Origin: a virus
Reading direction: 5' to 3' (one strand)
Virus record (IMG/VR): IMGVR_UViG_3300032006_002784
Location: 1 to 28,945 of that record
Length of the DNA: 28,945 nucleotides
The first letter of the stretch is position 1. Each line of letters opens with the position of its first letter. Below are positions 11,740-28,945 of the stretch, piece after piece. A model generated the notes under the pieces. That model saw only the letters and a program-made list of their open reading frames with translations, made no database searches and was not told where the DNA came from. The position numbers were made by a program, and so were the translations under genes.

Positions 11740-14043
11740 ATGCGTCCCTCCGGCTCCATGGGCTTTTCCCCCGAAGCGGCGGATAGCTGGCTTGTCACTC
11801 GCGGCCTTCGCCTGACGTCTGCCCAGGTCGCCACCACGCGCATTCCGGCGGCTGTCATGTCGTTCCGGACGATAGGTTGCACCACGGAAGGCGATGGTGG
11901 CGGCGGGTTATTCGTGCGCGTCGTCGCCGAACCGGCGCACGCCGGCAAACGGCAGGACGCGACCGGTGCTTGGTTCGAACTGGACGAAATGCTCGTGGAC
12001 CCGCGCATGTTCACCGGGGTTCCCGACGCTGCGAACGCGGACGGCAGCGACGCTGCAGGATTCACCGACAACACCGCCGCAATCAACAACGCGCTCTGGT
12101 ATGCCTCGCTGCGCGGCGCGTCGGCGCGCCCGGCCAGCACCTCCAAGATTGACGGCGCTTGGGCGGCGGGCGCTCGAATTGTCATCTTCCGGCCCGGCCC
12201 AACGCGCCAGAAGTCCGTCTATGGCGTCACCGGCCGATGCCAGATTTATCCCTGCTCTACCACGGTGATCGGACGCGGCGCGGAAGTGCGCGCCATGACG
12301 GGCTTCGCCAAGGCGGCGGCGGCGGATGCCGTTTCCGCCGTGTTTGAAAGCTCTACGGCACTGGAAGTTGCTGCCGGCGCCAAGAGCGTCCGCAATGTCC
12401 TGTTTGTCCTGCAAGGCAACATCAACTGCAACAGGATCGCTGATGTCGGTATTCAGGGTCACGTGGGCAACAACTGGAAGGTCATGGGAGAGAGCGGAAA
12501 AGTGCTCTTTCCGAAGCTGAACGGTGTCCGGTTCGGCCTGCCCGCCAACGGCGAGTCTATGTTCGAGTGCGACACCATCAAGTTGGATGTGCAGTTTTTC
12601 CGGACCGACACGGACACCGGCGGAACGAACGACCCCAACAGCGTCGGCATCGAATATGCGAAATGCACGGACAGCAAGATTGAGCAATGCACCGTGGTCG
12701 GCGGCCGGCGCGGTTTCCTCTCGCGATCCGGCGATAACACGTTCGACAAGTGCCATCCCTGGACTACGCCTGGTTGCGGCCCGATGGTGGCAGGGTTCAC
12801 AAACTATTCCAGCGGCGTGAAGTACGACAATTGCGTGGCCGATGGGATGCAGAGCATGGGCGTCGCCTCGATCGGCGGCTCTAACGGCAAGGTGGCGGCG
12901 TTCGAGTGCTATGGCTCTGCCGAGATTTCGAACCCCACGTTCCTCCACTCGGCCAACCTTGCGCCCGATGGCGGTTCCTATGCAGGCGAGGCTAACCTCG
13001 TCTACTCGACGATCGCGCCCGGTACGGGCACCGTTTCCGTCACCGGCACGGTGATGATCAAGAAGCTCAACACCGCACCGAAAATGGGGGCGCTTCTCAA
13101 CGGCGATCAGCGCGTCATCCGCATGTCGGCCCAGCTCGTGCTGCTGAATGGCGCGGACTATGACCGCACGCTGGGCGCGCTCCCGCTTGGCATCACCCGC
13201 AACGCCGCGCCGAACCGCGATTTCAGCATGTGGCAGCGCGGTAATGGTCCGAACTCGTGCATTGGCGCGGCCGGTCAAGTCATCCGCTTCTGTGATCGGT
13301 GGTGGACGCAAACCGGCTCCACCACCGGAGCGCGCACGCTCGGGCGCGAATGGATCACGGATGCCAACGCCGCAGGCATTTCGCACGCCTCCGTGCTCAC
13401 CGTCGAACAGACGGCCGATCCCGGCGATGCGCAATACTTCAACCTGTGCGCCACCCTGCCACCAGAAGACCTGATGGACGCCGCCGGGAAGTACATGACG
13501 GTCGCCTTGAAGGCGCGCCTTGTCAGCGGTGCCGTTGATACCGGCTTTTCGGCCAGCGCCTATTGGGTCACCAGCAACGGCATCAATGGCGCCACTGCCA
13601 ATTCGCCCGCGTCGCCGGTCCTGCCGCTCCCGGCGGTTACCAGCGCATTCCAGCTCTACCTGCTTCGCTTTCTGGTCCCCTCGATGGACGGCAAGGTGAT
13701 TGACCCCAACTATGCCAAGTTGCAGGTGCAGATCGCGCTGCCCAAGACGGGCATCTGGAAGATGCAAATCGGCGAAATGCTCCACTCGTTTGGCGACGTG
13801 TGGCAGGATTTTCAGGTTCCATCGCGCCAGGATGTCGAGAACGAAGCGCTGCGCTTTTTCGAGCGGGTCAACTTCCGCACGATCAACGGTTCGCGCGGGG
13901 TCAGTTACAAGCGAAAGGCCAAGACGCCAGCTCTCACTCTTTCGGCTGGGCCGGCGCTGGTCGGACAGTGGAACCTGTCAGACGTTGTGGTGTCACACAA
14001 TGCCAGCACCGACGCCGTGCTGGACGTGCTCGCCGAACTCTGA
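11740..14043 (+). CDS. Tailspike protein, predicted beta-helix with C-terminal binding domain
   Basis: This 767-residue protein is a probable tailspike. Residues about 100-130 (FTGVPDAANADGSDAAGFTD, then NTAAINNAL) match the start of pectate-lyase-like right-handed beta-helices in phage spikes. The following 300 residues have the Gly/Asn/Val-rich repeating character of a parallel helix (CTVVGGRRGFLSRSGDNTF). From about residue 490 a second part begins with NRDFSMWQRGNG and CDRWW, as in carbohydrate-binding domains of phage fibres. The FFERVNF motif near residue 707 resembles fibre C-terminal modules. Whether it cleaves polysaccharide is unknown, because I cannot place catalytic residues. It follows the spike base gene by one base, and the two are probably co-translated. 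Confidence 0.82.
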   Translation: MRPSGSMGFSPEAADSWLVTRGLRLTSAQVATTRIPAAVMSFRTIGCTTEGDGGGGLFVRVVAEPAHAGKRQDATGAWFELDEMLVDPRMFTGVPDAANADGSDAAGFTDNTAAINNALWYASLRGASARPASTSKIDGAWAAGARIVIFRPGPTRQKSVYGVTGRCQIYPCSTTVIGRGAEVRAMTGFAKAAAADAVSAVFESSTALEVAAGAKSVRNVLFVLQGNINCNRIADVGIQGHVGNNWKVMGESGKVLFPKLNGVRFGLPANGESMFECDTIKLDVQFFRTDTDTGGTNDPNSVGIEYAKCTDSKIEQCTVVGGRRGFLSRSGDNTFDKCHPWTTPGCGPMVAGFTNYSSGVKYDNCVADGMQSMGVASIGGSNGKVAAFECYGSAEISNPTFLHSANLAPDGGSYAGEANLVYSTIAPGTGTVSVTGTVMIKKLNTAPKMGALLNGDQRVIRMSAQLVLLNGADYDRTLGALPLGITRNAAPNRDFSMWQRGNGPNSCIGAAGQVIRFCDRWWTQTGSTTGARTLGREWITDANAAGISHASVLTVEQTADPGDAQYFNLCATLPPEDLMDAAGKYMTVALKARLVSGAVDTGFSASAYWVTSNGINGATANSPASPVLPLPAVTSAFQLYLLRFLVPSMDGKVIDPNYAKLQVQIALPKTGIWKMQIGEMLHSFGDVWQDFQVPSRQDVENEALRFFERVNFRTINGSRGVSYKRKAKTPALTLSAGPALVGQWNLSDVVVSHNASTDAVLDVLAEL

Positions 14044-16480: not shown

Positions 16481-17206
16481 TTATCCGGACGCGAGCTTTT
16501 TGCGTTCGCGCTCAAGGCCATCGATCAGTTTCTTGACGCCGCATCCTTCGTTCAGTTCCAGGGCGCGATGGAAAGCGGCCAGCGCCGCATCGATCAGGGC
16601 GCCCCTGCCGCCGGCGGACGCGCTTTCCGCTTCCGGATCGAAGGCATCGGCACGCGCCTTCAGCGCAATCCCAATGGCCTTCTTGAGCTTGGCCGAGACC
16701 TGCTGGTGCATGTCATGGTCCGTGGTGAGCGCGTCGATCGCGAGGAGCGTTTCAAGGTCCACGGTTGGTGTGGGGGTGAGCCCGGCGGTCGCCACTTCTT
16801 CCGCGATCAGCACGGCGGGCTTGCGCAGATATCGTTCGGGCAGCGCGATACCGGTGCCGAGTACGTAGGCGGCGAGCGGAAGCGCCAGCGCCCAATCGGC
16901 GATGTCGATTGACCAGACCAGCACGGTTCCGACGATCTCGTCCTGCGTGCCCGCATTGCCCGCCATCGCGCCTTCAACCCATGGGCGATAGCGGCCGATC
17001 ATTTCCCGCTTGGCGGCGATCTTGCGCTCGATCGACTGGATGTTGCGCAGGGTGGACAAGTCCTGCCCCAGCGCGGCCAGCAGGAACTGGTACTCCGTGG
17101 CGACAGGCCCTTCATCGGGCATGGGCGACGCGCCGGGCACATCGGGATCCCCCGTGGCGATGGCGGCAAGTGAGCGGAGAAGGTGAGCGCGTGCCGGGGA
17201 GTTCAT
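16481..17206 (-). CDS. M: Terminase small subunit M (endonuclease subunit)
   Basis: This 241-residue protein matches P2 gpM (about 247 residues), the terminase subunit that works with P in cutting at cos. The patterns NIQSIERKIAAKREMIGRYR and GTVLVWSIDIADW...ALPLAAYVLG are typical. The N-terminus is short and Ala-rich. AAGGAA precedes the ATG at 17206. The gene lies after N as in P2. The 117-base gap between M and L holds a short GC-rich hairpin (CCCGC/GCGGG near 16446) and nothing else I can support. Confidence 0.92.
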   Translation of the reverse strand: MNSPARAHLLRSLAAIATGDPDVPGASPMPDEGPVATEYQFLLAALGQDLSTLRNIQSIERKIAAKREMIGRYRPWVEGAMAGNAGTQDEIVGTVLVWSIDIADWALALPLAAYVLGTGIALPERYLRKPAVLIAEEVATAGLTPTPTVDLETLLAIDALTTDHDMHQQVSAKLKKAIGIALKARADAFDPEAESASAGGRGALIDAALAAFHRALELNEGCGVKKLIDGLERERKKLASG

Positions 17207-17299: not shown

Positions 17300-18331
17300 T
17301 CAGACGTTGCGTTCCTTGATGTTTTCCACAAGGCAGGCGTAGTCGAGATCCTCGATGACGTAGGCCTCGTTCGACGAGTTGTAGTCGGTCACCTGATCGA
17401 GTTCCGGTTCGTCCCTGATCAGGCGGCGGCGCTTGCCGTCCTGGTAGTAGATCGAGAGGTTGTCGAAGCGCGTGATGAACACCGTGCCCGCCGGGAAGCC
17501 GGGCACCTGATAGGCCGGCAGCCCGCCGAGGCGCTTGGTGGACATGATCATGTCGCGCGCGATCTGTTCGGTCGGCGCTTCGGCGCTGTTGATCAGCGGA
17601 AAATACTTGTCGTGAAGCAAGTCGCCCGAGACCAGCACCACGAGTTCGGTATCTTCCTTCGCCCATTCGGCCAGCAGAGACTGCTTGGCATCCCAGACCA
17701 GCGCATCGAGCGTGGCGTAATCGCCATCGGAGCCATAGGTGACTTTGCCGGCTTCCTTGCCACCGACAATGGCCGATAGCACGCGCGGCGCGTTTTCGGC
17801 CCGCATCTTCGCCAGCCACCCGACGTTGACGTCCTGCAGCTTGGGATTGGCGACGCGATCGGTCTGTGCGGCGGCGTGCGTGCCGTTGAACCCGATCAGG
17901 ATCCGGTCCAGCGCCACGCGCTTGACGTTGTTATCGCGCCACTTGGTTTCGAAGGTGGGGAACTTCGCCCACTTGTCGACCTTGGCGTACTTGATCGCGA
18001 CATCGAAATTGGTCTGCTTGCATTCATAGCTCCGCCCGTCCTGGGCAGAGGGATCGATGCCGGTGCGGCGGGTGCCGCCAGCGGTGTTGGTGCGGCCGGC
18101 GATGGTGCTGCCGATGCCAAGGCCAAGCAGTTCCCCGGTCAGTTCATCGACCGGTTCGATGTTGATCTTCGACAGGAACTCGCTGGATTCCTGCACGCGC
18201 TGTTCCAGCTTCTGCTGGACCGATGGTTCGACCGTGAACTTGGCGGTGCCGGCCGTGGCGGGATCGATGCCGTTGAGCAGGGCGATCTGCGAAACCATCG
18301 CATAGAATTTGGCCCGGGTAGTGTTCTTCAT
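17300..18331 (-). CDS. N: Major capsid protein N
   Basis: This 343-residue protein matches P2 gpN (357 residues). The N-terminal block (TRAKFYAMVSQIALLNGID, then AKFTVEPSVQQKLEQ and SSEFLSKINI) aligns closely with P2. In P2 the O protease removes the first 31 residues, and a similar cleavage before KFTVEPSV is likely here. The C-terminal part with DLLHDKYFPLIN and QIARDMIMSTKRLGGLPA also fits. GAGGA precedes the ATG. Confidence 0.95.
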   Translation of the reverse strand: MKNTTRAKFYAMVSQIALLNGIDPATAGTAKFTVEPSVQQKLEQRVQESSEFLSKINIEPVDELTGELLGLGIGSTIAGRTNTAGGTRRTGIDPSAQDGRSYECKQTNFDVAIKYAKVDKWAKFPTFETKWRDNNVKRVALDRILIGFNGTHAAAQTDRVANPKLQDVNVGWLAKMRAENAPRVLSAIVGGKEAGKVTYGSDGDYATLDALVWDAKQSLLAEWAKEDTELVVLVSGDLLHDKYFPLINSAEAPTEQIARDMIMSTKRLGGLPAYQVPGFPAGTVFITRFDNLSIYYQDGKRRRLIRDEPELDQVTDYNSSNEAYVIEDLDYACLVENIKERNV

Positions 18332-19282: not shown

Positions 19283-19389
19283 CGGGGATACTCCGTCCTC
19301 TGATCGTTTTGCTGACCTGCCCTGGCGGGGACGGGCGACCGGCTGACGAGTGGCAGAGGACAGGTTGGCGCGGCGCTTCGCAACGCGGG

Positions 19390-19418
19390 CGCGTTGTGCC
19401 CGCAGGTGCGACAACGGG
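19390..19418. promoter_or_regulatory. Late-promoter dyad 3 (Ogr/Delta-type site) between O and P
   Basis: CGCGTTGT (19390-19397), 13 bases, then ACAACGGG (19411-19418), with one mismatch in the outer arm. The centre is 57 bp from the P start codon. A TAGCGT hexamer (19448-19453) sits where a -10 element would be if transcription began at the P ATG. The endolysin has CAGCGT at the matching place. An extra CAACGCG arm at 19381-19387 could belong to a second, leftward site for O. Confidence 0.65.
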
Positions 19419-19460
19419 GAAGGGTTAGGCGCGGGCGCCGAGGCTCATAGCGTGCCGGGT

Positions 19461-21341
19461 ATGGAGCTGCCGCCCGACTTCGGAAACGACAACACGACGG
19501 ATGCTGCCGGCGGGGATGCACCTGCCGGTGGCGCCGATGGCGTGCCATCGATCCCGGCGATCGTGGCGCGGCGGATTGAGGCGCGTTCCCTGTACTGGCG
19601 TGGCTGGGCGATCAGCCAGATCGCGGAGGAGCTGGATCTACCCTATTCGACGGTGGCGAGCTGGAAAACGCGCGGGCGATGGGATGATGCCAGCGCGATG
19701 CAGCGGGCCGAGGAGGGCACGCTCGAGCGGTACCTGATGCTGGTGGCCAAAGATCGCAAAACCGGCAGCGACTTCAAGGAAATCGACCTGCTGGGCCGGC
19801 AGTTCGAGCGGTTCGACCGGCGGCGCAAGTATCAGGACGGCGGCAACGAGGCCGACCTGAACCCCGATCGCGCCAACGGCGCGAAGGCAACCAACGCCCG
19901 GAAGGAAAAGGCACGCAACCGCGTCACGCCCGAGATGGTCGCGGCGCTGCGCGCGGACTTCGAAGCGAACCTTTACGGGCATCAGGAGACCTGGCTTTCC
20001 ACGACGCACCTGCGCACGCGGATGCTGCTGAAAAGCCGGCAGATCGGGGCGACCTGGTATTTCGCGCGTGAACGACTGCTGGTGGCGCTGGAGACCGGCA
20101 AGAACCAGATCTTCATTTCGGCGAGCCGGGCGCAGGCCAACATCTTCCGCAACTACATCGTGCAATGGGTGCAGAAGGTTTGCGGGATTGCGCTGAAGGG
20201 CGATCCGATCGTGATCCAGCGTGGCAGCGGCGACGAAAGCGCCGCCGAAGCGCAGGAGCCGGTCGAGCTCTATTTTCTGGGTACGAACTATCGCACGGCA
20301 CAGGGATATCACGGCGACGTCATCATCGACGAGTGCTTCTGGATTTATGGCTTCGAGGAGCTGTTCAAGGTCGCCAGCGCGATGGCGACGCAGAAGCAGT
20401 ACACGATCACGCTGTTTTCCACGCCCAGCACGCTGGCCCACGAAGCCTATCCGATGTGGTGCGGCGACCGGTACAACCGGAGGCGCGCCAGGGCGGACAA
20501 GGTGCGGATCGAGATCGGGCACGAAGCCTTGCGCGGCGGCGCGATCGGCCCGGATGGCATCTATCGCCAGATCGTTTCGCTCGATGACGCCATCGCGGGT
20601 GGCTATGACCTGATCGACCGGGCGCAGCTTGTGCTGCAATATGCCGTCGACGAATTCGAGAACCTGTTCGGCTGTGTTTTCCTGGATGACAGCCAGAGCA
20701 TGTTTCCGTTCCAGATCATGCGCCGGTGCATGGTGGATAGCTGGGACGTGTGGCGGGATTTCCAGCCCTATGCCTTACGGCCCTACGAAGGCGAGGTGTG
20801 GCTGGGGTACGATCCCAACGCCAGCGAGAACGGCACGGGTGACGATGCCGCGCTGGTGGCGGTTGCCGCGCCGACCAAGCCGGGCGGCAAGTTCCGCGTG
20901 CTGGAAAAGCTACGGCTGAAGGGCAAGGACTTCGAAGGGCAGGCCGAGGCGGTGAAGGCGATGGCCGGCAAATATACCGTGACCCGCATTGCCATCGACA
21001 CCACGGGCGCGGGCAAGGCGGTGCACCAGCTCGTGAGCAAGTGGTTCCCGACCGCCGAAGCCATCCATTATTCGGTGCCGGTGAAATCGGCCATGGTGCT
21101 GAAGGCCAAGAACGTGATCGCCAACGGCCGCCTGGAATTCGACGCCGGGTGGATGGACGTGATGCAGGCCTTCATGGCGATCCGCCCGGAAATCACCAAG
21201 CACGGCGTTTCCTATGTCGCGAGCCGGGCTGGCGGCGTGGGCCATGCCGATCTGGCGTGGGCGATCATGCACGCGCTCTATTTCGAACCGTTGGACAGCA
21301 GCGAGCCTGTCGGCGGTGGTTCTACCGTGGAGATCTTCTGA
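19461..21341 (+). CDS. P: Terminase large subunit P (ATPase and nuclease)
   Basis: This 626-residue protein matches P2 gpP, the packaging motor. An HTH-like segment at about residues 47-70 (GWAISQIAEELDLPYSTVAS) resembles the N-terminal DNA-binding part of this family. The ATPase follows, with SRQIGATW (192-199) as a divergent Walker A and VIIDE (287-291) as Walker B with catalytic E291. The C-terminal nuclease shows D451 (GYDPNAS), D513 (AIDTTGAG) and D597 (GHADLAW). The ATG at 19461 has no Shine-Dalgarno sequence. The frame opens further upstream, but that part would run through the late dyad. Its stop overlaps the Q start as TGATG. Confidence 0.94.
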   Translation: MELPPDFGNDNTTDAAGGDAPAGGADGVPSIPAIVARRIEARSLYWRGWAISQIAEELDLPYSTVASWKTRGRWDDASAMQRAEEGTLERYLMLVAKDRKTGSDFKEIDLLGRQFERFDRRRKYQDGGNEADLNPDRANGAKATNARKEKARNRVTPEMVAALRADFEANLYGHQETWLSTTHLRTRMLLKSRQIGATWYFARERLLVALETGKNQIFISASRAQANIFRNYIVQWVQKVCGIALKGDPIVIQRGSGDESAAEAQEPVELYFLGTNYRTAQGYHGDVIIDECFWIYGFEELFKVASAMATQKQYTITLFSTPSTLAHEAYPMWCGDRYNRRRARADKVRIEIGHEALRGGAIGPDGIYRQIVSLDDAIAGGYDLIDRAQLVLQYAVDEFENLFGCVFLDDSQSMFPFQIMRRCMVDSWDVWRDFQPYALRPYEGEVWLGYDPNASENGTGDDAALVAVAAPTKPGGKFRVLEKLRLKGKDFEGQAEAVKAMAGKYTVTRIAIDTTGAGKAVHQLVSKWFPTAEAIHYSVPVKSAMVLKAKNVIANGRLEFDAGWMDVMQAFMAIRPEITKHGVSYVASRAGGVGHADLAWAIMHALYFEPLDSSEPVGGGSTVEIF

Positions 21342-22357
21342 TGAGCGAGCCAGATACCGTGCCGGTGCAGGCCGATGCCTTCACCTTTGGCGAGCCGGTG
21401 CCGGTGCTGGACAGGCGTGAGGTATTCGACTTCTTCGAAGTGGCGCACAATGGCCGCTGGTATGAACCGCCGGTATCGCAGGCGGGGCTTGGCCGCGCCT
21501 ATCGCATGGCGCCGCACCACCAGTCCGCGATCCTGCTCAAGCGCAACCTGCTGGTGGCGAGCTTCGAGCCGACGCGGTGGCTGTCCAAGACTGATTTTGC
21601 CCGGTTCGCGCTCGACTGGCTGGTGTTCGGCAATGCCTATCTCCAGTCGGTGCCGAACCTGGCCGGGGGCACGGCGCTGCTGAGGCCTTCCCCGGCACCA
21701 TGGACGCGCGTGGGGCTGAAGCCTGACCAGTTCTTCTACGTGCAGCCGGGCCGGTTCATGGCCGATGCGCTGGAATATCAGCCGGGCTCTGTGTTCCACC
21801 TTATGGAGCCGGACCCGATGCAGGAGATCTACGGGATGCCGGAGTATCTCTCCGCCCTGCAATCCGGCCTGCTGAACGAGAGCGCCACGCTGTTCCGCCG
21901 CAAATACTACCTCAACGGCAGCCATGCGGGCTTCATCCTCTATATCGGTGAGGAAGGGCTGAACAACGCGGACAGCGACAAGATCCGCGAAGCGCTAAAA
22001 GAGTCCAAGGGGCCGGGCAACTTCCGCAACCTGTACCTCCACATCCCCAAGGGGAAGGACAAGGGCGTGCAGGTGATCCCGATTGCCGAGCTTGGCGCCA
22101 AGGACGAATTCCTGGGCATCAAGGAAGTGACGCGGGACGACATGCTGGCCGCGCACCGCGTGCCGCCGCAACTGCTGGGTATCGTTCCCAAGAATGCGGC
22201 GGGATTCGGCAATGTGAACGATGCGGCGCGCACGTTCTACCAGATGGAGATCGTGCCGATCCTGACGCGCATGCTGGAAGTGAATGACTGGCTGCGCAAG
22301 CCGGCGATCGTGACGAAGGAACCCGACTTCGTGCAGGTAGCTCGGGCCGCAGCCTGA
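21341..22357 (+). CDS. Q: Portal protein Q
   Basis: This 338-residue protein matches P2 gpQ (344 residues), the dodecameric portal through which DNA enters and leaves. Characteristic parts are FTFGEPVPVLDRREVFDF, YRMAPHHQSAILLKRN, LDWLVFGNAYLQ, and VPPQLLGIVPKNAAGFGN near the C-terminus. The frame continues upstream into P, but the coupled ATG at 21341 gives the normal length. In P2 the cos site lies just downstream of Q. Confidence 0.94.
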   Translation: MSEPDTVPVQADAFTFGEPVPVLDRREVFDFFEVAHNGRWYEPPVSQAGLGRAYRMAPHHQSAILLKRNLLVASFEPTRWLSKTDFARFALDWLVFGNAYLQSVPNLAGGTALLRPSPAPWTRVGLKPDQFFYVQPGRFMADALEYQPGSVFHLMEPDPMQEIYGMPEYLSALQSGLLNESATLFRRKYYLNGSHAGFILYIGEEGLNNADSDKIREALKESKGPGNFRNLYLHIPKGKDKGVQVIPIAELGAKDEFLGIKEVTRDDMLAAHRVPPQLLGIVPKNAAGFGNVNDAARTFYQMEIVPILTRMLEVNDWLRKPAIVTKEPDFVQVARAAA

Positions 22358-22523: not shown

Positions 22524-23345
22524 ATGCAATGCAATACCCTTGCCAATGCCGCGCAGCTTGATCCCGTCGGCACCGTGCGCCCGCTTGCCCCGTACATCGG
22601 GGGCAAGCGGAACCTTGCGAAGCGCCTGGTGGCGCGGATCAATGCGATCCCGCACCGGACCTATGCCGAAGCGTTTGTCGGGATGGGCGGGGTGTTCTTC
22701 CGCCGAGATCGGCGCCCGGCGTCCGAAGTGATCAACGACTGGTCGGAGGACGTTTCCACGTTCTTCCGCGTGATCCAGCACCACTATGTGCCCTTCCTCG
22801 ATATGATCCGCTTCCAGATTACGAGCCGGGCGGGCTTCGACAAGCTGGCGGTGCTGGACCCGGCATCGCTGACCGATCTGCAGCGATCGGCGCGGTTCCT
22901 CTATCTGCAGCGCCTGGCGTTCGGGGGGAAGGTTGCCGGGCGTCATTTCGGCGTCAATCCGCCCGCGCCGGGGCGATTCGACATGACCAAGCTGGGGCCG
23001 ATGATCGAAGCCGTGCATGAGCGGCTTGCCGGCGTGGTGATCGAGCGTTTGCCTTGGGCGGATTTCCTTGCGCGGTATGACCGCGAGGGGACGCTGTTCT
23101 ACCTCGATCCGCCGTATTTCGGGTGCGAGAGCGACTATGGCCGGGATCTGTTCGACCGGGGCCAGTTCGAGGCCATGGCTGAAGCGCTGCGCGGTTTGCG
23201 CGGGCGCTTCCTGCTTTCGCTGAACGACCACCCGGAAGTGCGGCGGATCTTCGCGGGCTTCAACTTCGACGTGGAGGACGTGCGTTACCAGGTGGGCGGG
23301 ATGGACCGCAGCAAGATGGTGCGGGAGGTGATTATCTCGCGGTGA
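22524..23345 (+). CDS. DNA N6-adenine methyltransferase (D12/Dam class)
   Basis: This 273-residue protein is a Dam-class adenine methyltransferase that transfers methyl groups from S-adenosylmethionine to N6 of adenine. The N-terminal PYIGGK motif (23-28), the AdoMet-binding FVGMGG motif (51-56) and the catalytic DPPY motif (195-198, in FYLDPPYFG) are all intact and in the alpha-group order. The middle recognition domain (about 80-165) is not assignable to a target sequence. It lies directly downstream of Q with no restriction enzyme nearby, so it is probably an orphan enzyme that protects phage DNA or alters gene control. GGAG lies upstream of the ATG. A LexA box overlaps its likely promoter. 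Confidence 0.9.
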   Translation: MQCNTLANAAQLDPVGTVRPLAPYIGGKRNLAKRLVARINAIPHRTYAEAFVGMGGVFFRRDRRPASEVINDWSEDVSTFFRVIQHHYVPFLDMIRFQITSRAGFDKLAVLDPASLTDLQRSARFLYLQRLAFGGKVAGRHFGVNPPAPGRFDMTKLGPMIEAVHERLAGVVIERLPWADFLARYDREGTLFYLDPPYFGCESDYGRDLFDRGQFEAMAEALRGLRGRFLLSLNDHPEVRRIFAGFNFDVEDVRYQVGGMDRSKMVREVIISR

Positions 23346-23843
23346 TGCGGCGGGGCTGGCGATGGGGGCGTCGGCCCACAGCCCATGCATGTATGGTCTA
23401 TTGACCGATGGTTGGCTTCACCTGGTTCAGGCAGTTCGCGACCAGACCCCGCCGCTCCACGACCTTCCATAAACGTCGACTCACGCCGGAAACCGGACAC
23501 GCGCTGTCCCAGCAAGCGCCCGGATAGCAAGTGCCCAATTACCGACGTTAACTGTGAAGGCGCAGATCGATTATCTTCCGCTGGCCTTTTAGGGTTTGTC
23601 CAAGCCAAATGCGCCCGCTCGCAGCGATGCAAGTCAACCGCGGTTCCAATCGTTCAACTCCGCAGTTGCTACCGGATTGTCATCGATGGGTAGACAACTG
23701 GGGTTAAAGGGCGGTAGTTTTCCCCAGCAGAATGCGGCTGACTAGAGAAAAAGCAGCATTGCATTTATACGGTTGATATCGCCGCCGATTAGGTGCGCTC
23801 CCGATAAGGCAGTAGCTATGCAATCGACAAATGGGTTCATTCA
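23346..23843. other. 498-base intergenic region before the AAA ATPase
   Basis: I see no convincing gene here. Frames of about 100 codons exist on both strands but read as low-complexity, non-protein-like sequence. Composition falls from GC-rich near the methyltransferase to mixed and then A/T-rich near 23700-23843. CTGGGG (23698-23703) and CCCCAG (23722-23727) form a short dyad. The interval joins two parts of different base composition and may mark the left edge of an inserted cargo gene. Confidence 0.5.
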
Positions 23844-23847
23844 ATGA
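23818..23847 (+). promoter_or_regulatory. Possible nine-codon leader ORF coupled to the ATPase gene
   Basis: ATG at 23818 opens a frame encoding MQSTNGFIQ whose TGA (23845-23847) overlaps the ATPase ATG (23844-23846) as ATGA. AAGG lies about nine bases upstream of this ATG. The ATPase start itself has no clear ribosome binding site. Translation of the leader could deliver ribosomes to the ATPase start. The evidence is only the overlap and the ribosome-binding-site difference. Confidence 0.25.
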
Positions 23848-25802
23848 GATTGCAGTTTAACAAAACTCACCTCTCGGTGACGAGCTTCCCCACGATAGAG
23901 TTGCCAGTGTTCGCGCTGATCACCGGACCGAACGGGGCCGGAAAGAGTCATCTTCTTCAAGCGATCAACAACGGGTCCATTCAAACGGACGTCGCACAGG
24001 CTAACACGCCAGCTCAACAGATCAGAATGTTCGATTGGAACAATCTGGTGCCGTATGACACTGGCGCGTTCTCCAGCGAAAGTCTCCGGAATGAACGCGC
24101 AGGGGCGCGGGACAATTTTCTGACGTTGCGGCAGCAGCCCGAGGCAATGGAGCCGCTACGGGCAATTGGGCGGCAGTGGAACTTGTCGAGCGACTACATT
24201 GATAATCCGACCAAGTTAATTGGCCTTCCATCTGAGGTTCTAGCGACATTGGTACCCGCTGGAATGGATGTCGTTGCGGCCGAAGAGCAACTCGCCAACG
24301 CTGCAAACGCTTCTAGCAACTGGATTCTCCAGCATACAGACGACAACACCAAGGCCACCCTAATGGCGATGAGCGCGGCCGCGAAGCGTCCGATTATCGC
24401 AATGAACGATAAGCACCTTGATGCGTCGGGAATCCCGAACTGGGGAAGATCAGATCTCTTCCAGCAATCGTTCGCCAGGCTGTTCGTTGCATACCGAGAC
24501 GCAAAGCTTACGAACCTGCTGGCCGAACTGCAGGCCAGTAAGGGGCAACCGGGCGTAGAGTTCCTGTCCGAAGAGGAATTTACGAAGGCGAACGGGCCTG
24601 CACCTTGGGATTTCGTGAATCAAACGGTTAAGGCTGCTGGTCTTGATTTCGAGATTAACAGCCCAAGTCCGTACGACTTTTCTCCGTACACCCCGCAATT
24701 GACTAAGACGTCCAGCGGGGCAGAAGTGCAATTTTCCAGTCTCTCTTCAGGCGAAAAGATTCTGATGTCTTTTGCATTTTGCGTATACTATGCGAATGAT
24801 AGGAGGCAGCTCGCAGTTTATCCAAAGTTGATCTTGTTCGATGAGATCGACGCCCCGCTACACCCTGCAATGACAAAAAGTCTGGTTGACACAATCACCG
24901 GTACGCTCGTGGGGGAGTTCGGGATCAATGTTGTGGCCACCACCCACTCGCCTTCTACGGTTGCTATGTCGCCGGACGATTCATTGTTTATGATGCGGCC
25001 AGGACGTCCGGGTCTGACGCAGGTGAAGAAGGCAGAGGCGCTCAACATGCTGACTGTCGGTGTGCCCACCTTGGCAATCTCTTTTGACGGGCGCAGGCAG
25101 GTGTTTGTTGAAAGCCCCGCCGACGCAAAAACCTACGACGCTGTTTACAAGTTGTTGAAGCCGAGAATCGGTTCGGAACGGTCGCTGGAATTTGTGTCGA
25201 CCGGTGGGCTAACCAACGTCGGGTGTGACGTCGTAAAGCGACTGGTTGAGAGCCTTGTTGGGGCAGGAAACCAGTCCGTCTTTGGGTTGATCGACTACGA
25301 CGGTCACCACCAAGGCTTGGAGCGCATCGCAGTCTTAGGTAAAGGCGAGCGCAATGGGCTCGAGAATTTTCTTTTCGATCCGTTGCTTATCGCCGCGCTC
25401 ATCTGTCGTGATGTCAAAGTGCATAGGCCTGCGATCGGAATGGCAGAATCACTCAGCTATCCTTCGTTCCTGTTGCAAGGGCCTTCGGAGATGCAGGAGA
25501 TAGTTGACCGTGTAACTGAGGCTGTGTTCGGAGGCTCGGCTGAGCAGCGCATTGAGACTGAATACGTCGGTTCCTATTCACTTTCGCTGGACCAGCGCTG
25601 GTTGCTTGAAGACGATCATAGTTTGGAGGGGAAAGTCATCGAGGCGTTCCCGTCCATTCAAGCCCTGACAAAGAAGCAAGCTGGGAAGCTGATGCAGCAC
25701 ATCGTTGGAACGGTCTTGTCCGATCGCATCGAATTGCTTCCGCAAGCGCTTGCCAATACCTTTATTGATCTGCTGGAGTGGGACTCCCACATTCAGGAGT
25801 AG
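23844..25802 (+). CDS. AAA (ABC-type) ATPase fused to a TOPRIM/DUF4435-like domain, putative anti-phage defence protein
   Basis: This 652-residue protein has two parts. Residues 1 to about 400 form an ABC/OLD-type ATPase: Walker A GPNGAGKS (28-35), signature SLSSGEK (299-305), Walker B LILFDE (329-334) and H-loop H368 in ATTHSPS. Residues about 415-560 look like a TOPRIM-type nuclease of the DUF4435 kind: VFVESPAD with E423, then LIDYDG with D484 and D486, then ENFLFDP (507-513). This layout matches fused AriA-AriB proteins of PARIS defence and is related to OLD and GajA. The locus lies where P2 carries old/tin. GC is much lower than in the structural genes (27 of 60 in 24781-24840), implying separate origin. 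All catalytic motifs are intact. The specific system name is inference. Confidence 0.75.
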   Translation: MRLQFNKTHLSVTSFPTIELPVFALITGPNGAGKSHLLQAINNGSIQTDVAQANTPAQQIRMFDWNNLVPYDTGAFSSESLRNERAGARDNFLTLRQQPEAMEPLRAIGRQWNLSSDYIDNPTKLIGLPSEVLATLVPAGMDVVAAEEQLANAANASSNWILQHTDDNTKATLMAMSAAAKRPIIAMNDKHLDASGIPNWGRSDLFQQSFARLFVAYRDAKLTNLLAELQASKGQPGVEFLSEEEFTKANGPAPWDFVNQTVKAAGLDFEINSPSPYDFSPYTPQLTKTSSGAEVQFSSLSSGEKILMSFAFCVYYANDRRQLAVYPKLILFDEIDAPLHPAMTKSLVDTITGTLVGEFGINVVATTHSPSTVAMSPDDSLFMMRPGRPGLTQVKKAEALNMLTVGVPTLAISFDGRRQVFVESPADAKTYDAVYKLLKPRIGSERSLEFVSTGGLTNVGCDVVKRLVESLVGAGNQSVFGLIDYDGHHQGLERIAVLGKGERNGLENFLFDPLLIAALICRDVKVHRPAIGMAESLSYPSFLLQGPSEMQEIVDRVTEAVFGGSAEQRIETEYVGSYSLSLDQRWLLEDDHSLEGKVIEAFPSIQALTKKQAGKLMQHIVGTVLSDRIELLPQALANTFIDLLEWDSHIQE

Positions 25803-26069
25803 GTGAAAGAGCGAAGTAAAACAAATTCACGTATGCTTTCTCCCGCGAACCGGATCATGCCCAGGCCTGGCGAGTGCGGCTAAGTGGGGCCGCCTGAGTC
25901 GGTCTTTCCATTGGCCAGGGACGCGGTCAGGCGAGTTCTGAACCATCGCTTCTGGAAAGACTGCCATTAGGCATTTCGGTCGCATACGCGGGCTTTGTTC
26001 CATCCCTAGCCTGTCGTCGGCGCAGCTAGGCGCGGATTCCGGGGAAATACCTAACCGCTCGCGTTAAGG
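25803..26069. other. Intergenic region after the ATPase
   Basis: No gene is supported in these 267 bases. CCTAGC (26005-26010) and GCTAGG (26025-26030) form a short hairpin, and GC content rises again toward 26040. The ATPase and the next gene are convergent, so a terminator is expected here, but I see no stem followed by a T-run. Confidence 0.4.
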
Positions 26070-26400: not shown

Positions 26401-26799
26401 TTACAGGGCGACGATATCCGTGTCGTCCGGATCGACCTGCCATTTGCCCGCGACGACCTGGTAATCGTCATAGACCCGGTAGAGCGTGAACGGATCGGTG
26501 GCGATCGTGGTGTACCGTTCCGGGTTTTCCGCCTTCATATCGTAGCCATTCGATAGCGCGTCCATGTAGACATAAGCCCGCATGATGATGGCTGTGGCGG
26601 CGACGTTCGGGGGCGAGAGGCCTTCTTCCTGGGCGAATCGGATCAGGCCATCTTCGCGTTCTTCCAGGGAAGATGCAGTGTAGACGTCATAGCCGCGCTC
26701 GATCTGGTCCATGGTGAGAGTGACGGCGTTCAACGCTTCCACGAATTGCTTCCACTCGCTGACGGGGGCGTTTTCTTCCGGAAGGTCGAAATGCTGCAT
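26401..26799 (-). CDS. Unknown acidic protein (132 aa), probably SOS-regulated
   Basis: This protein begins MQHFDLPEENAPVSEWKQFV. It is strongly acidic and mostly helical in character, with no membrane segment, signal peptide or cysteine motif. I do not recognise it. The frame opens at 26862, but the ATG at 26799 is preferred because LexA box 2 lies 24-38 bases upstream of it and would fall inside the coding region otherwise. It forms a two-gene unit with the zinc-ribbon protein downstream. A role in damage response or prophage induction is only an inference from the operator. Confidence 0.6.
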   Translation of the reverse strand: MQHFDLPEENAPVSEWKQFVEALNAVTLTMDQIERGYDVYTASSLEEREDGLIRFAQEEGLSPPNVAATAIIMRAYVYMDALSNGYDMKAENPERYTTIATDPFTLYRVYDDYQVVAGKWQVDPDDTDIVAL

Positions 26800-26822
26800 G
26801 GCTGAGGCCTCGATTGAATAAG

Positions 26823-26837
26823 GAACAATACAAGAAC
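26823..26837. promoter_or_regulatory. LexA (SOS) box 2, between the 132-residue gene and the SRAP gene
   Basis: GAACAATACAAGAAC fits GAAC-N7-GAAC exactly. It lies 24 bases from the start of the minus-strand 132-residue gene and 60 bases from the SRAP start on the plus strand, so it can control either or both divergent genes. SRAP proteins are often SOS-associated, which supports a real operator. Confidence 0.7.
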
Positions 26838-26896
26838 AAATGGGCGATTCGGTCAAGCGCATTGACGGGTAAGCCGGGGCGCGGAATCATCCGGAA

Positions 26897-27523
26897 ATGT
26901 GCAACCTCTATCGCCTGCGCAGTGCCGCCGCCGAAGTCGCGCATACGTTCGATGCCGAAGCGGACGAGGGCGCGAACTATGACGAGGAAGTCTATCCAGG
27001 GTACAACGGGCTGGTGGTGGTCGATGGCCGCGTGCGGGCGATGACGTGGGGCTTTCCCCGGCCAATGAAGGGCCGGAACGGACAGCCGATCAAGCCCAAG
27101 GCCGTTACCAACGCGCGCGAGGACAAGCTCCATACCTGGTTCTGGCGCGACAGCTTCGAGCGGAGGCGCTGCCTGATCCCGGTGACGGCCTGGGCGGAGC
27201 CGCAGGGCGAGGACGGGCGCATGACGCGCACATGGTATGCGCCGGCGGGCGAGGGTGTCTTCGCGATCGGCGGGATCTGGCGCCGGTCTGACGAATGGGG
27301 TGACGTCTATTCCATGGTGATGGTCGATAGCAGCCCGCAGATGGCGGACGTGCATGACCGCATGCCGGTGATCCTTCGCCGCGAGGACTGGACGCGCTGG
27401 ACCGGTGCGTCGGCGGACGAGGCGTTTGGCCTGTGCAGGACGTGGCCGGGGGAATTGGCGGTGGATGCCACCGATCAGCCGTGGGTGGCCCGGCGGGGCG
27501 CTGCAGCGCCCCGGCTGATTTGA
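26897..27523 (+). CDS. SRAP domain protein (YedK/HMCES family, abasic-site protein)
   Basis: This 208-residue protein belongs to the SOS response-associated peptidase family. E. coli YedK and human HMCES form a stable thiazolidine crosslink with abasic sites in single-stranded DNA through Cys2. All key residues are present: C2 directly after the initiator Met (MCNLYRL), N72 in TNARED, E101 in WAEPQG and H153 in VHDRMPV. These align with Cys2, Asn75, Glu105 and His160 of YedK. M1 must be removed to free Cys2, which fixes the start at 26897. It would shield damaged single-stranded DNA during phage replication or host repair. LexA box 2 lies upstream. Confidence 0.93.
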   Translation: MCNLYRLRSAAAEVAHTFDAEADEGANYDEEVYPGYNGLVVVDGRVRAMTWGFPRPMKGRNGQPIKPKAVTNAREDKLHTWFWRDSFERRRCLIPVTAWAEPQGEDGRMTRTWYAPAGEGVFAIGGIWRRSDEWGDVYSMVMVDSSPQMADVHDRMPVILRREDWTRWTGASADEAFGLCRTWPGELAVDATDQPWVARRGAAAPRLI

Positions 27524-27534
27524 TCGCGGGACGG

Positions 27535-27729
27535 CTAAAGCGCCAGGCGTTCCTGCCCTGATCGGCCCGGCGGGGGCGTTCGTTCGATCTGATCCGTAAT
27601 GCAGCGCGCCAGCTCGCGCGCGGCATCCTCTCGCATGATGGACGTGGGGGCCGTGATCCCCACGCGCGCCCAGCCAGGCGCGTTTAGGATGGCCTCTGCG
27701 ATGGCGGTGGTGTCGACTCTGTGTTCCAT
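27535..27729 (-). CDS. Small protein of unknown function (64 aa), DUF6771-like
   Basis: This 64-residue protein begins MEHRVDTTAIAEAILNAPGW and contains ARVGITAPTSIMREDAARE, which resembles small sphingomonad proteins I associate with DUF6771, though from memory only. The C-terminus ends QERLAL after a Pro-rich segment. The frame is open much further upstream, but LexA box 3 lies 12-26 bases before the ATG at 27729, so this start is preferred. It converges with the SRAP gene, with 11 bases between the stops. No function is known. Confidence 0.65.
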   Translation of the reverse strand: MEHRVDTTAIAEAILNAPGWARVGITAPTSIMREDAARELARCITDQIERTPPPGRSGQERLAL

Positions 27730-27740
27730 GGCGAGGATTG

Positions 27741-27755
27741 GAACATAATGTGAAC
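27741..27755. promoter_or_regulatory. LexA (SOS) box 3, upstream of the 64-residue gene
   Basis: GAACATAATGTGAAC fits GAAC-N7-GAAC exactly and ends 12 bases from the ATG of the minus-strand gene at 27729. Like boxes 1 and 2, it has the longer form GAACA-N6-GAACA. Confidence 0.65.
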
Positions 27756-28210
27756 ATCGATGCAAGGGCGGCCTCGATCGATCGATGGGCGAGGCAGGGC
27801 GTGCCCGGCCGCAGCGTGCCCCCTGCGACCTCGCGCGCCGCGCTTGCCCCCACGCCCCGCCTCCACGCTTTTTGGGTCGAAATTTCGCAGTCGAGGTAGG
27901 AAGCAAGGCGGTGTCGTAGCGCCAAAAACGGCCGTTTTGCGTGGTCACAGTGCAGTGTGAGGAATGACGCATTCCTACGCAGGTCACGCATTGGCGCTGA
28001 TCGGAAATATCGATGGGCAAAACGATCAATCCCGGCACGAACCTTGCCCCTCGGCCCCTGCCGAGCCCCAGAGCGGCATAGCCGCTCTGTACACAGGCGC
28101 CTTCCATGCTCCGCTGATGGCGGATAAGACGGTTCCGATAGTGCGACACGATCAAATTGCGCGTGGCGAAGCCACTCCTTTCCATAGGGGATATATCCCC
28201 TCCCGGTTTC
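27756..28210. other. Gene-free region rich in dyads between the 64-residue gene and the replication protein gene
   Basis: No gene is supported. Dyads in order are AAAACGGCCGTTTT (27925-27938, perfect), TCACAGTGCAGTGTGA (27945-27960, 14 of 16 symmetric), GGAATG/CATTCC (27961-27975), CTCGGC/GCCGAG (28050-28065), CAGAGCGGC/GCCGCTCTG (28069-28089, three-base loop), GTGGC/GCCAC (28163-28175) and AGGGGATATATCCCCT (28186-28201, perfect). Such density suggests operators, an origin or partition site, or a transfer origin, but no function can be assigned. The boundary between prophage and a plasmid-type element may lie here. Confidence 0.5.
28186..28201. repeat. Perfect 16-bp palindrome just downstream of the replication protein gene
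   Basis: AGGGGATATATCCCCT is its own reverse complement. It lies 10 bases beyond the stop codon of the minus-strand gene (28211-28213). It could be a protein-binding site or act as a hairpin in the transcript. No T-run follows on the minus strand. Confidence 0.6.
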
Positions 28211-28945
28211 TCAGCACGTCGACGATTCGCGCTCCTGGTCAATGAGCCTTGCGATTCTTGCGAGAGTTTCGCCCGCGAGCTGGTCGCCAGTCCAGGTGTC
28301 CCTGACCAGCTCCTGAGCGCTCAGGCCGGCAACCATCGTCCTCCATTCCTCTGCCTGTTGCTCTTTCCGCCAACGGGCGTCGTCAGGGATGGGGGCTTTG
28401 CCTAGGAGGTGCTTGACCAGCCCCTCAATCGACTTGGGAAGGAGCAGAGCATAGGCGTTGGTGATCTGTTCCACCTGCGGTCCAGCTTCGCTCTTTCTGT
28501 CAGTGGGACGGCACCGTCTGATCCAATGTAGGAAGCCAGCGGTACGCAGTCGGCGCAACGCAGCGTGGACGGCCGAGTAGGAGTGACCGACGGCATCGGC
28601 AATCGTAGCGATAGCCGGCTCGAGCGTGCCGGTCTTGAAGTCGACAAACCTTGTGTAGAGAACCTCAAGGACGTCCAGCCCGATTTGCCCCAGCACGCCA
28701 TTTCTAGTGCCGGGATGCGAGCGTTGCCGCTCGACGCGCGTGCGGCGCTCGAGCTCCTTGGCGCTTTTCAGGATTGCGCCGATCCTGCGTCTGGCACCAC
28801 GCTTGGTGCCGTCCGCGATCGGCCGCCAGAGCCGATGTTCGAGCTGCCCTTGGTTGTAAGTGTTCCGCCAGACCGGTTGTCCGGACCGATACACTTTCTT
28901 GGGCTTTGCCTGCGCGATGATCTCGCCAATCGACCGCACGGTCAT
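28211..28945 (-). CDS. HTH protein resembling plasmid replication proteins of sphingomonads
   Basis: This 244-residue protein contains a winged-helix HTH at about residues 95-145 (ATIADAVGHSYSAVHAALRR, then AGFLHWIRR). A motif QVEQITNAYALLLP and a C-terminus ending ERESST follow. I associate this arrangement with HTH replication-type proteins found on plasmids and integrative elements of sphingomonads. That is family memory, not a search result. A basic N-terminal third (about 10-75) may add DNA contacts. The ATG is bases 28943-28945, so the gene is complete but its promoter is outside the window. In P2 order the replication module belongs on this side of cos, so it may replace gene A or belong to a neighbouring element. 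Confidence 0.6.
   Translation of the reverse strand: MTVRSIGEIIAQAKPKKVYRSGQPVWRNTYNQGQLEHRLWRPIADGTKRGARRRIGAILKSAKELERRTRVERQRSHPGTRNGVLGQIGLDVLEVLYTRFVDFKTGTLEPAIATIADAVGHSYSAVHAALRRLRTAGFLHWIRRCRPTDRKSEAGPQVEQITNAYALLLPKSIEGLVKHLLGKAPIPDDARWRKEQQAEEWRTMVAGLSAQELVRDTWTGDQLAGETLARIARLIDQERESSTC

What the first reader, a model, noticed from the sequence alone, without database searches (positions are those of the whole stretch)
23844..25802. Single-gene ATPase-TOPRIM protein in the P2 old/tin position: probable fused PARIS/OLD-like defence
One polypeptide carries an intact ABC-type ATPase (GPNGAGKS, SLSSGEK, LILFDE, H368) followed by TOPRIM-like E423, D484-Y-D486 and ENFLFDP. It lies on the Q/cos side of the genome in a low-GC island. 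P2 puts old and tin here, and this is a known hotspot for defence genes including PARIS. A fused AriA-AriB-like protein in a sphingomonad P2-like prophage could be a new branch of that system, with an unknown trigger.
Basis: partly seen in the sequence, partly recalled or inferred. Interest (0 to 1): 0.72.

Follow-up and report, generated by a model that had tools for sequence, protein, structure and literature searches.

The report
Fused PARIS-like defence gene in prophage
A single prophage gene joins an ATP-driven sensor to a nuclease domain whose predicted fold is closest to AriB, the tRNA-cutting part of the PARIS anti-phage system, making it very probably a one-protein PARIS-like defence carried as cargo; fused PARIS genes are already known, so this is a divergent new branch rather than a new kind of system.

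Summary
[quoted passage not shown] The ATPase residues and E423, D484 and D486 are invariant in 32/32 aligned sequences. The C-terminal domain folds confidently alone (pLDDT 89.8). Its best solved match is AriB of PARIS (Z 12.1 over 188 residues), ahead of OLD/GajA TOPRIMs (Z 6-8). A profile of the domain finds DUF4435 proteins but not OLD-type or retron I-B TOPRIMs. P0001 itself has no Pfam DUF4435 match, so I call it PARIS-like rather than PARIS.

The gene is cargo. A 2.45-kb unit is 86% identical in a Novosphingobium genome with unrelated flanks. Its GC3 is low and dN/dS is about 0.17. It sits just beyond portal-methyltransferase in a P2-like prophage; none of 20 related sphingomonad prophages carries it there. 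Divergent relatives lie beside the portal in three other P2-like contigs.

Likely action: abortive infection. The ATPase senses a phage product, probably through its hypervariable insert (about 51-250), and switches on the attached AriB-like nuclease, perhaps a tRNase. Trigger and substrate are unknown. Single-gene AriA-AriB fusions were reported in 2022, so interest is moderate.

The parts
23844..25802 (+). 652-aa fused ABC-ATPase / AriB-like TOPRIM protein (P0001)
   Evidence: relatives of the same single-ORF architecture
23925..23948 (+). Walker A, GPNGAGKS (residues 28-35)
   Evidence: K34 invariant 32/32
23994..24593 (+). Helical insert between the two ATPase half-lobes (residues about 51-250), most variable part of the family; candidate sensor surface
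   Evidence: Conservation profile; helices in model. The sensor role is inference
24738..24758 (+). ABC signature SLSSGEK (299-305)
   Evidence: S301 and G303 invariant
24828..24845 (+). Walker B LILFDE (329-334)
   Evidence: D333/E334 invariant
24945..24947 (+). H-loop H368
   Evidence: Invariant 32/32
25083..25799 (+). AriB-like TOPRIM domain with C-terminal helical part (residues about 414-652)
   Evidence: Model of 396-652 pLDDT 89.8, pTM 0.86; AriB 8ux9_A Z 12.1, rmsd 3.7, 188 residues; DUF4435 profile matches
25110..25112 (+). Catalytic E423
   Evidence: Invariant 32/32; aligns with the E of VEG/FVEG in DUF4435 proteins
25293..25301 (+). Metal-binding D484-x-D486
   Evidence: Invariant 32/32; aligns with GLIDRD of DUF4435 proteins
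25362..25382 (+). ENFLFDP motif (507-513), counterpart of IENYLFD in DUF4435 proteins
23554..26002 (.). Transferred cargo unit: gene plus about 290 bp upstream and 200 bp downstream shared with Novosphingobium sp. KCTC 2891 at 86% identity; flanks unrelated
22524..23345 (+). D12-class adenine DNA methyltransferase; follows the portal in about half of the sampled related sphingomonad prophages, so it marks the slot rather than being a partner
   Evidence: Pfam
21041..22357 (+). Portal protein (P2 Q-like; true start probably near 21341)
   Evidence: PHROG 68, 456 bits

Best explanation
A single-polypeptide, PARIS-like abortive-infection defence protein carried as superinfection-defence cargo by a P2-like prophage. 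SHOWN by sequence or predicted structure: an ABC/SMC-type ATPase with all motifs, joined by a short low-confidence linker to a TOPRIM domain of AriB fold with intact catalytic acids; a conserved family under purifying selection; a mobile unit inserted beyond the portal. INFERRED: the ATPase oligomerises and holds the TOPRIM inactive; a product of a superinfecting phage binds it, probably at the hypervariable insert (51-250); the resulting change lets the TOPRIM domains dimerise and cut an essential host substrate. A tRNA is the likeliest substrate by analogy with AriB, but only at about 45%. Growth then stops before the phage matures. Because sensor and nuclease are one chain, activation cannot be by release of a free subunit, as in two-gene PARIS; it must be a rearrangement in place, or proteolysis.
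For: C-domain model: AriB rows 1 and 2 (Z 12.1 and 10.9), next OLD 7.7 and GajA 6.0. hhalign of the C-domain family profile: best DUF4435 proteins E 1e-10 to 6e-7; OLD-type and retron I-B TOPRIM proteins E above 0.01. PADLOC AriAB matches 32/32 family members and P0001 at 45 bits across ATPase and TOPRIM; two alphaproteobacterial fusions that do pass Pfam's DUF4435 cut-off have best stretches of 61 and 44 bits on that model. Tree: the family's nearest branch is DUF4435 fusions, apart from retron I-B and OLD. AriA is among the ATPase matches (8ux9_B Z 13.2). Catalytic residues invariant. Mobility, GC3 and dN/dS. Slot beyond portal. Relatives beside type I restriction genes and TIR-domain genes. 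AriB as tRNase and fused AriA-AriB from PMC12409363 and PMC9122126.
Against: P0001 has no Pfam DUF4435 match and only 9/32 family members have a weak one. The best PADLOC model is the retron I-B ATPase-Toprim. Foldseek alone gave no significant PDB match for the C-domain (best E 0.06); the AriB match rests on the second aligner. ATPase folds do not discriminate: PtuA and SMC score as high as or higher than AriA. No activity, trigger or substrate is shown for any family member here.
Confidence: 0.72

Rival explanations
1. A Class 1 OLD-type nuclease: a stand-alone ABC-ATPase/TOPRIM protein that attacks DNA, like P2 Old, acting on superinfecting phage DNA or on replication intermediates.
For: Single gene, same domain order, same genomic position as P2 old; OLD TOPRIM structures are the next-best fold matches (Z 6.4-7.7); OLD is among the PDB relatives of the family profile (6p74).
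Against: No OLD-like_TOPRIM Pfam hit; the C-domain profile does not match proteins that carry that domain (E 0.01 or worse); AriB scores clearly above OLD; the tree separates them.
Confidence: 0.13
2. The effector ATPase-TOPRIM of a type I-B retron, working with a reverse transcriptase and msDNA.
For: PADLOC's best model for P0001 is ATPase-Toprim_I-B, 73 bits, and all 32 family members match it.
Against: No reverse transcriptase in the record and no Rfam RNA; the shared 2.45-kb unit holds only this gene; proteins scoring 123-610 bits on that model do not match the C-domain profile and form a separate clade.
Confidence: 0.04
3. A Septu/PtuA-like or other ATPase defence protein that needs a separate, unlinked partner, the TOPRIM being only structural.
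For: PtuA gives the best defence-family ATPase fold matches (Z 14.8); many PADLOC PtuA models match.
Against: TOPRIM catalytic residues are invariant; no gene recurs as a partner beside relatives except phage core genes and the methyltransferase; PtuA has no TOPRIM of its own (general knowledge).
Confidence: 0.04
4. A non-defence mobile-element function, such as plasmid or prophage maintenance or SMC-like DNA handling.
For: Several relatives are on plasmids; the ATPase fold is SMC-like; an archaeal OLD-family protein has a cell-cycle role (PMC12796447).
Against: Patchy distribution (3/396), low GC, divergent versions beside the same prophage genes and neighbours such as type I restriction and TIR genes are typical of defence cargo.
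Confidence: 0.07

Closest known systems
PARIS (AriA + AriB), especially the single-gene AriA-AriB fusions (Rousset et al. 2022, PMC9122126)
   Same: ABC/AAA_21 ATPase plus AriB-fold TOPRIM; intact catalytic acids; carried by phage-related mobile elements; fusion already described.
   Different: Diverged so far that Pfam DUF4435 is not detected in this protein; separate clade next to DUF4435 fusions; large hypervariable insert; trigger and tRNA cleavage unknown; a fused effector cannot be released as a free dimer.
Class 1 OLD (P2 Old, Thermus scotoductus OLD 6p74)
   Same: Single gene, ABC ATPase + TOPRIM, old/tin-like position.
   Different: TOPRIM not of the OLD-like Pfam type; fold closer to AriB (Z 12.1 against 7.7 for the best OLD-family chain).
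Retron type I-B ATPase-TOPRIM effector (Class 3 OLD)
   Same: Domain order; top PADLOC model.
   Different: No RT or ncRNA found; TOPRIM profile does not match; separate clade.
Gabija GajA (Class 2 OLD)
   Same: ABC ATPase + TOPRIM nuclease.
   Different: No helicase partner among neighbours; weaker fold match (Z about 6).
PtuA (Septu / retron I-A)
   Same: ATPase lobe fold and signature sequence.
   Different: PtuA works with a separate HNH nuclease PtuB; here the nuclease is a fused TOPRIM.

Membership tests
PARIS (fused AriAB) | AAA_21 or AAA_15 ATPase above Pfam cut-off | tested here: met
   AAA_21 58.9 bits (cut-off 27); AAA_15 39.7 bits (cut-off 32.1)
PARIS (fused AriAB) | DUF4435 above Pfam cut-off in the same protein | tested here: not met
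   No DUF4435 hit for P0001 at E<=1; 9/32 family members match weakly, best 6.6e-5. Profile comparison with DUF4435 proteins does match
PARIS (fused AriAB) | Match to a fused AriAB model across ATPase and TOPRIM | tested here: met
   PDLC02981 45.2 bits, residues 288-520; 32/32 family members. PADLOC's detection threshold is not known to me
PARIS (fused AriAB) | AriB-type TOPRIM fold | tested here: met
   8ux9_A Z 12.1, rmsd 3.7, 188 aligned; 8v46_D Z 10.9; next best 7.7; model pLDDT 89.8
PARIS (fused AriAB) | TOPRIM catalytic E and DxD intact | tested here: met
   E423, D484, D486 invariant in 32/32
PARIS (fused AriAB) | Trigger by a phage protein (Ocr-like), AriA hexamer holding AriB inactive, tRNA cleavage | not testable with these tools
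   Needs experiment; described for E. coli PARIS in PMC12409363
Class 1 OLD | Single gene with ABC ATPase then TOPRIM | tested here: met
Class 1 OLD | OLD-like_TOPRIM domain (PF20469) | tested here: not met
   No Pfam hit; hhalign against PF20469-bearing proteins E 0.01-0.8
Retron type I-B | Linked reverse transcriptase | tested here: not met
   No RVT_1 in the 28.9-kb record (the record may be a fragment)
Retron type I-B | Retron ncRNA | tested here: inconclusive
   No Rfam family at gathering threshold, but not every retron ncRNA has an Rfam model
Retron type I-B | I-B type TOPRIM | tested here: not met
   hhalign E 0.05-0.4 against I-B-like proteins L113-L117
Gabija | Adjacent UvrD-like GajB helicase | tested here: not met
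   Flanking ORFs of 22.5-28.9 kb scanned with Pfam: methyltransferase and SRAP only, no helicase

The most novel reading that the evidence does not exclude
A deep branch of PARIS-like systems, borne largely by mobile elements, in which sensor and AriB-type nuclease are permanently one chain, so activation must be by in-place rearrangement and TOPRIM pairing instead of effector release. Each divergent version would carry its own sensor insert tuned to a different phage product, and versions would be swapped at fixed prophage slots.
Probability: 0.45. Interest if true: 0.55.

Novelty: new member of a known kind. Interest (0 to 1): 0.4.

Why it matters
[quoted passage not shown] This family gives about 37 full-length examples with a variable insert, invariant active sites and, for this copy, defined cargo boundaries. 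That makes the question testable: how is an AriB-like nuclease switched on when it cannot be released? The gene also shows that the portal-proximal cargo slot of P2-like phages is used outside enterobacteria, in sphingomonads. PADLOC's best-scoring model for this protein is a retron effector, which could mislabel it.

Tried and rejected
Direct protein-pattern scan of viral contigs with P0001 alone: no relative; tblastn in phage records: none. The alignment-based scan found 34 loci. Foldseek of the C-domain against PDB: nothing significant; the AriB match came only from the second aligner. Profile search of the C-domain against PDB sequences: no AriB match by sequence. NCBIfam: only sub-threshold ATPase matches. 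AriAB-family search over alphaproteobacterial genomes was swamped by generic ATPases (266/289 genomes, all 14 controls), so its counts were not used as prevalence. Methyltransferase as functional partner: rejected as the default, since it follows the portal in 11 of 20 related sphingomonad prophages (a twelfth has it split), none of which carries P0001. Split two-gene relative at L009: rejected, it is a copy interrupted by an IS3-type element. Promoter and terminator scan: no more sites than in shuffled sequence. 102-aa ORF 23385-23693: no family match, treated as spurious. The tree has long branches, so only its broad groupings are used.

Full report
OBSERVATION. It sits in a low-GC segment (0.53-0.55 against 0.62-0.68 in most of the window), with GC3 0.63 against 0.75-0.83 in TerL, portal and methyltransferase. 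The window is an IMG/VR virus record of 28,945 bases. It is P2-like: P2-family major capsid protein at 17300-18331(-), small terminase 16481-17206(-), large terminase 19350-21341(+), portal 21041-22357(+), sheath, tape measure and baseplate genes. After the portal come a D12 methyltransferase (22524-23345), the gene in question, and further right a replication-O-like gene (28211-28945, weak match).

FAMILY. Pfam sees only the ATPase (AAA_21 58.9 bits, AAA_15 39.7). PADLOC's best models include retron ATPase-Toprim_I-B (73 bits), AriA (66) and fused AriAB (45 bits, residues 288-520). Full-length relatives of about 590-690 aa, each one ORF, are in Novosphingobium (89% identity), on plasmids of Planktothrix (37%, full length), Rhizobium, Croceicoccus and Caballeronia, and in 34 viral-contig loci, a few of which are distant or cut by contig ends. 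An alignment of 32 (21-89% identity to P0001) keeps the Walker A lysine, signature serine and glycine, Walker B D-E, H368, E423, D484 and D486 in every row, N508 in 30 and E507 in 28. Residues about 51-250 are the least conserved and most gapped part.

WHAT THE C-TERMINAL DOMAIN IS. The full model (pLDDT 84.6) is dominated by the ATPase: PtuA, SMC and AriA (8ux9_B Z 13.2) all match, so the ATPase does not discriminate. The domain 396-652 folded alone gives pLDDT 89.8, pTM 0.86. Foldseek finds nothing significant, but VIA-align 2 ranks AriB of the two PARIS structures first (8ux9_A Z 12.1, rmsd 3.7, 188 residues; 8v46_D Z 10.9), then OLD TOPRIM domains (7.7 and below) and GajA (6.0). Independently, hhalign of the family's C-domain profile matches proteins found with the Pfam DUF4435 model (best E 1e-10, 3e-7, 6e-7). 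It aligns the FVES-x3-D, GLIDYD and RNGLENFLFDP stretches with VEGESD, GLIDRD and RWEIENYLFD. Proteins carrying the OLD-like TOPRIM or retron I-B-like effectors give E from about 0.01 to 0.8. DUF4435 is detected weakly in 9/32 family members but not in P0001. In a tree the family's nearest branch is DUF4435 fusions (SH-aLRT 87), apart from retron I-B and OLD; branches are long and only this broad placement is used.

MOBILITY AND SETTING. DNA shared with the Novosphingobium copy runs from 23554 to 26002 at 86% identity and stops on both sides; beyond it the Novosphingobium contig holds catabolic-type genes, not this prophage (the catabolic reading is mine, from the translations). dN/dS is about 0.17. 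Strong relatives occur in only 3 of 396 Sphingomonadales genomes, and one of these is interrupted by an IS3-type element. Among 20 related sphingomonad P2-like prophages fetched by their portal gene, 11 keep the methyltransferase whole after the portal and one has it split, and none has P0001. One carries a PHP-AAA ATPase beyond the portal (L144). In three other P2-like contigs (L031, L034, L046) family members 25-37% identical to P0001 also lie on the 3' side of the portal gene. L033, L042 and L057 share 78-84% identical DNA around a similar methyltransferase, yet carry family members only 24-31% identical to each other. This is the pattern of cargo swapped at fixed slots.

MECHANISM. In two-gene PARIS an AriA hexamer holds AriB inactive, a phage protein such as Ocr binds AriA, and AriB is released, dimerises and cuts tRNA-Lys and others (PMC12409363). 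The same parts are present here on one chain, joined by a low-confidence linker near residues 408-413. By inference, the ATPase cages the TOPRIM, a phage product binds the variable insert, and TOPRIMs pair in place and cut, probably, RNA. The sensor assignment, the substrate and the activation step are inference only. Retron I-B is unlikely: no reverse transcriptase, no Rfam RNA, no TOPRIM match. Gabija is unlikely: no helicase beside it.

NOVELTY. Rousset et al. already reported ariAB as a single-gene fusion and defined loose profiles for it (PMC9122126). This is therefore a new, divergent member of a known kind. Because a commonly used criterion (Pfam DUF4435) is not met by this protein, I call it PARIS-like rather than PARIS.

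Noticed in passing
window 22524-23345: A D12 adenine methyltransferase follows the portal and is found at the same place in 11 of 20 related sphingomonad P2-like prophages (split in one more); similar methyltransferases also lie within about 1 kb of family genes in L033, L039, L042, L050 and L057. Positional marker or functional link is unresolved.
   Followed up: partly
L137 1213-1776 and 4931-5161: The methyltransferase gene of this related prophage is split by about 3.1 kb that includes a BRO-family gene.
   Followed up: no
L144:2988-5690: A 901-aa PHP plus AAA ATPase (TrlF-like reading is mine) lies beyond the portal of a related sphingomonad prophage, possibly another defence cargo at the same slot.
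   Followed up: no
L131:217-3450: A 1078-aa Cas9-like protein (HNH_4 and RuvC_III) lies several kb past the portal of a related prophage; whether it is inside the prophage was not determined.
   Followed up: no
L009:1474-2427: A family member in another sphingomonad genome is interrupted at about residue 402 by an IS3-type transposase pair (the IS3 reading is mine).
   Followed up: partly
window 26897-27523: SRAP (SOS-associated peptidase) gene on the + strand, overlapped by a 434-aa minus-strand ORF (26687-27991) without any family match.
   Followed up: no
window 11740-14043: A 767-aa + strand ORF with no Pfam or PHROG match, overlapped by a 625-aa minus-strand ORF.
   Followed up: no
L006 (Caballeronia plasmid pNK84): A distant family member lies between two large TIR-domain genes near an integrase, looking like a defence island.
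   Followed up: no
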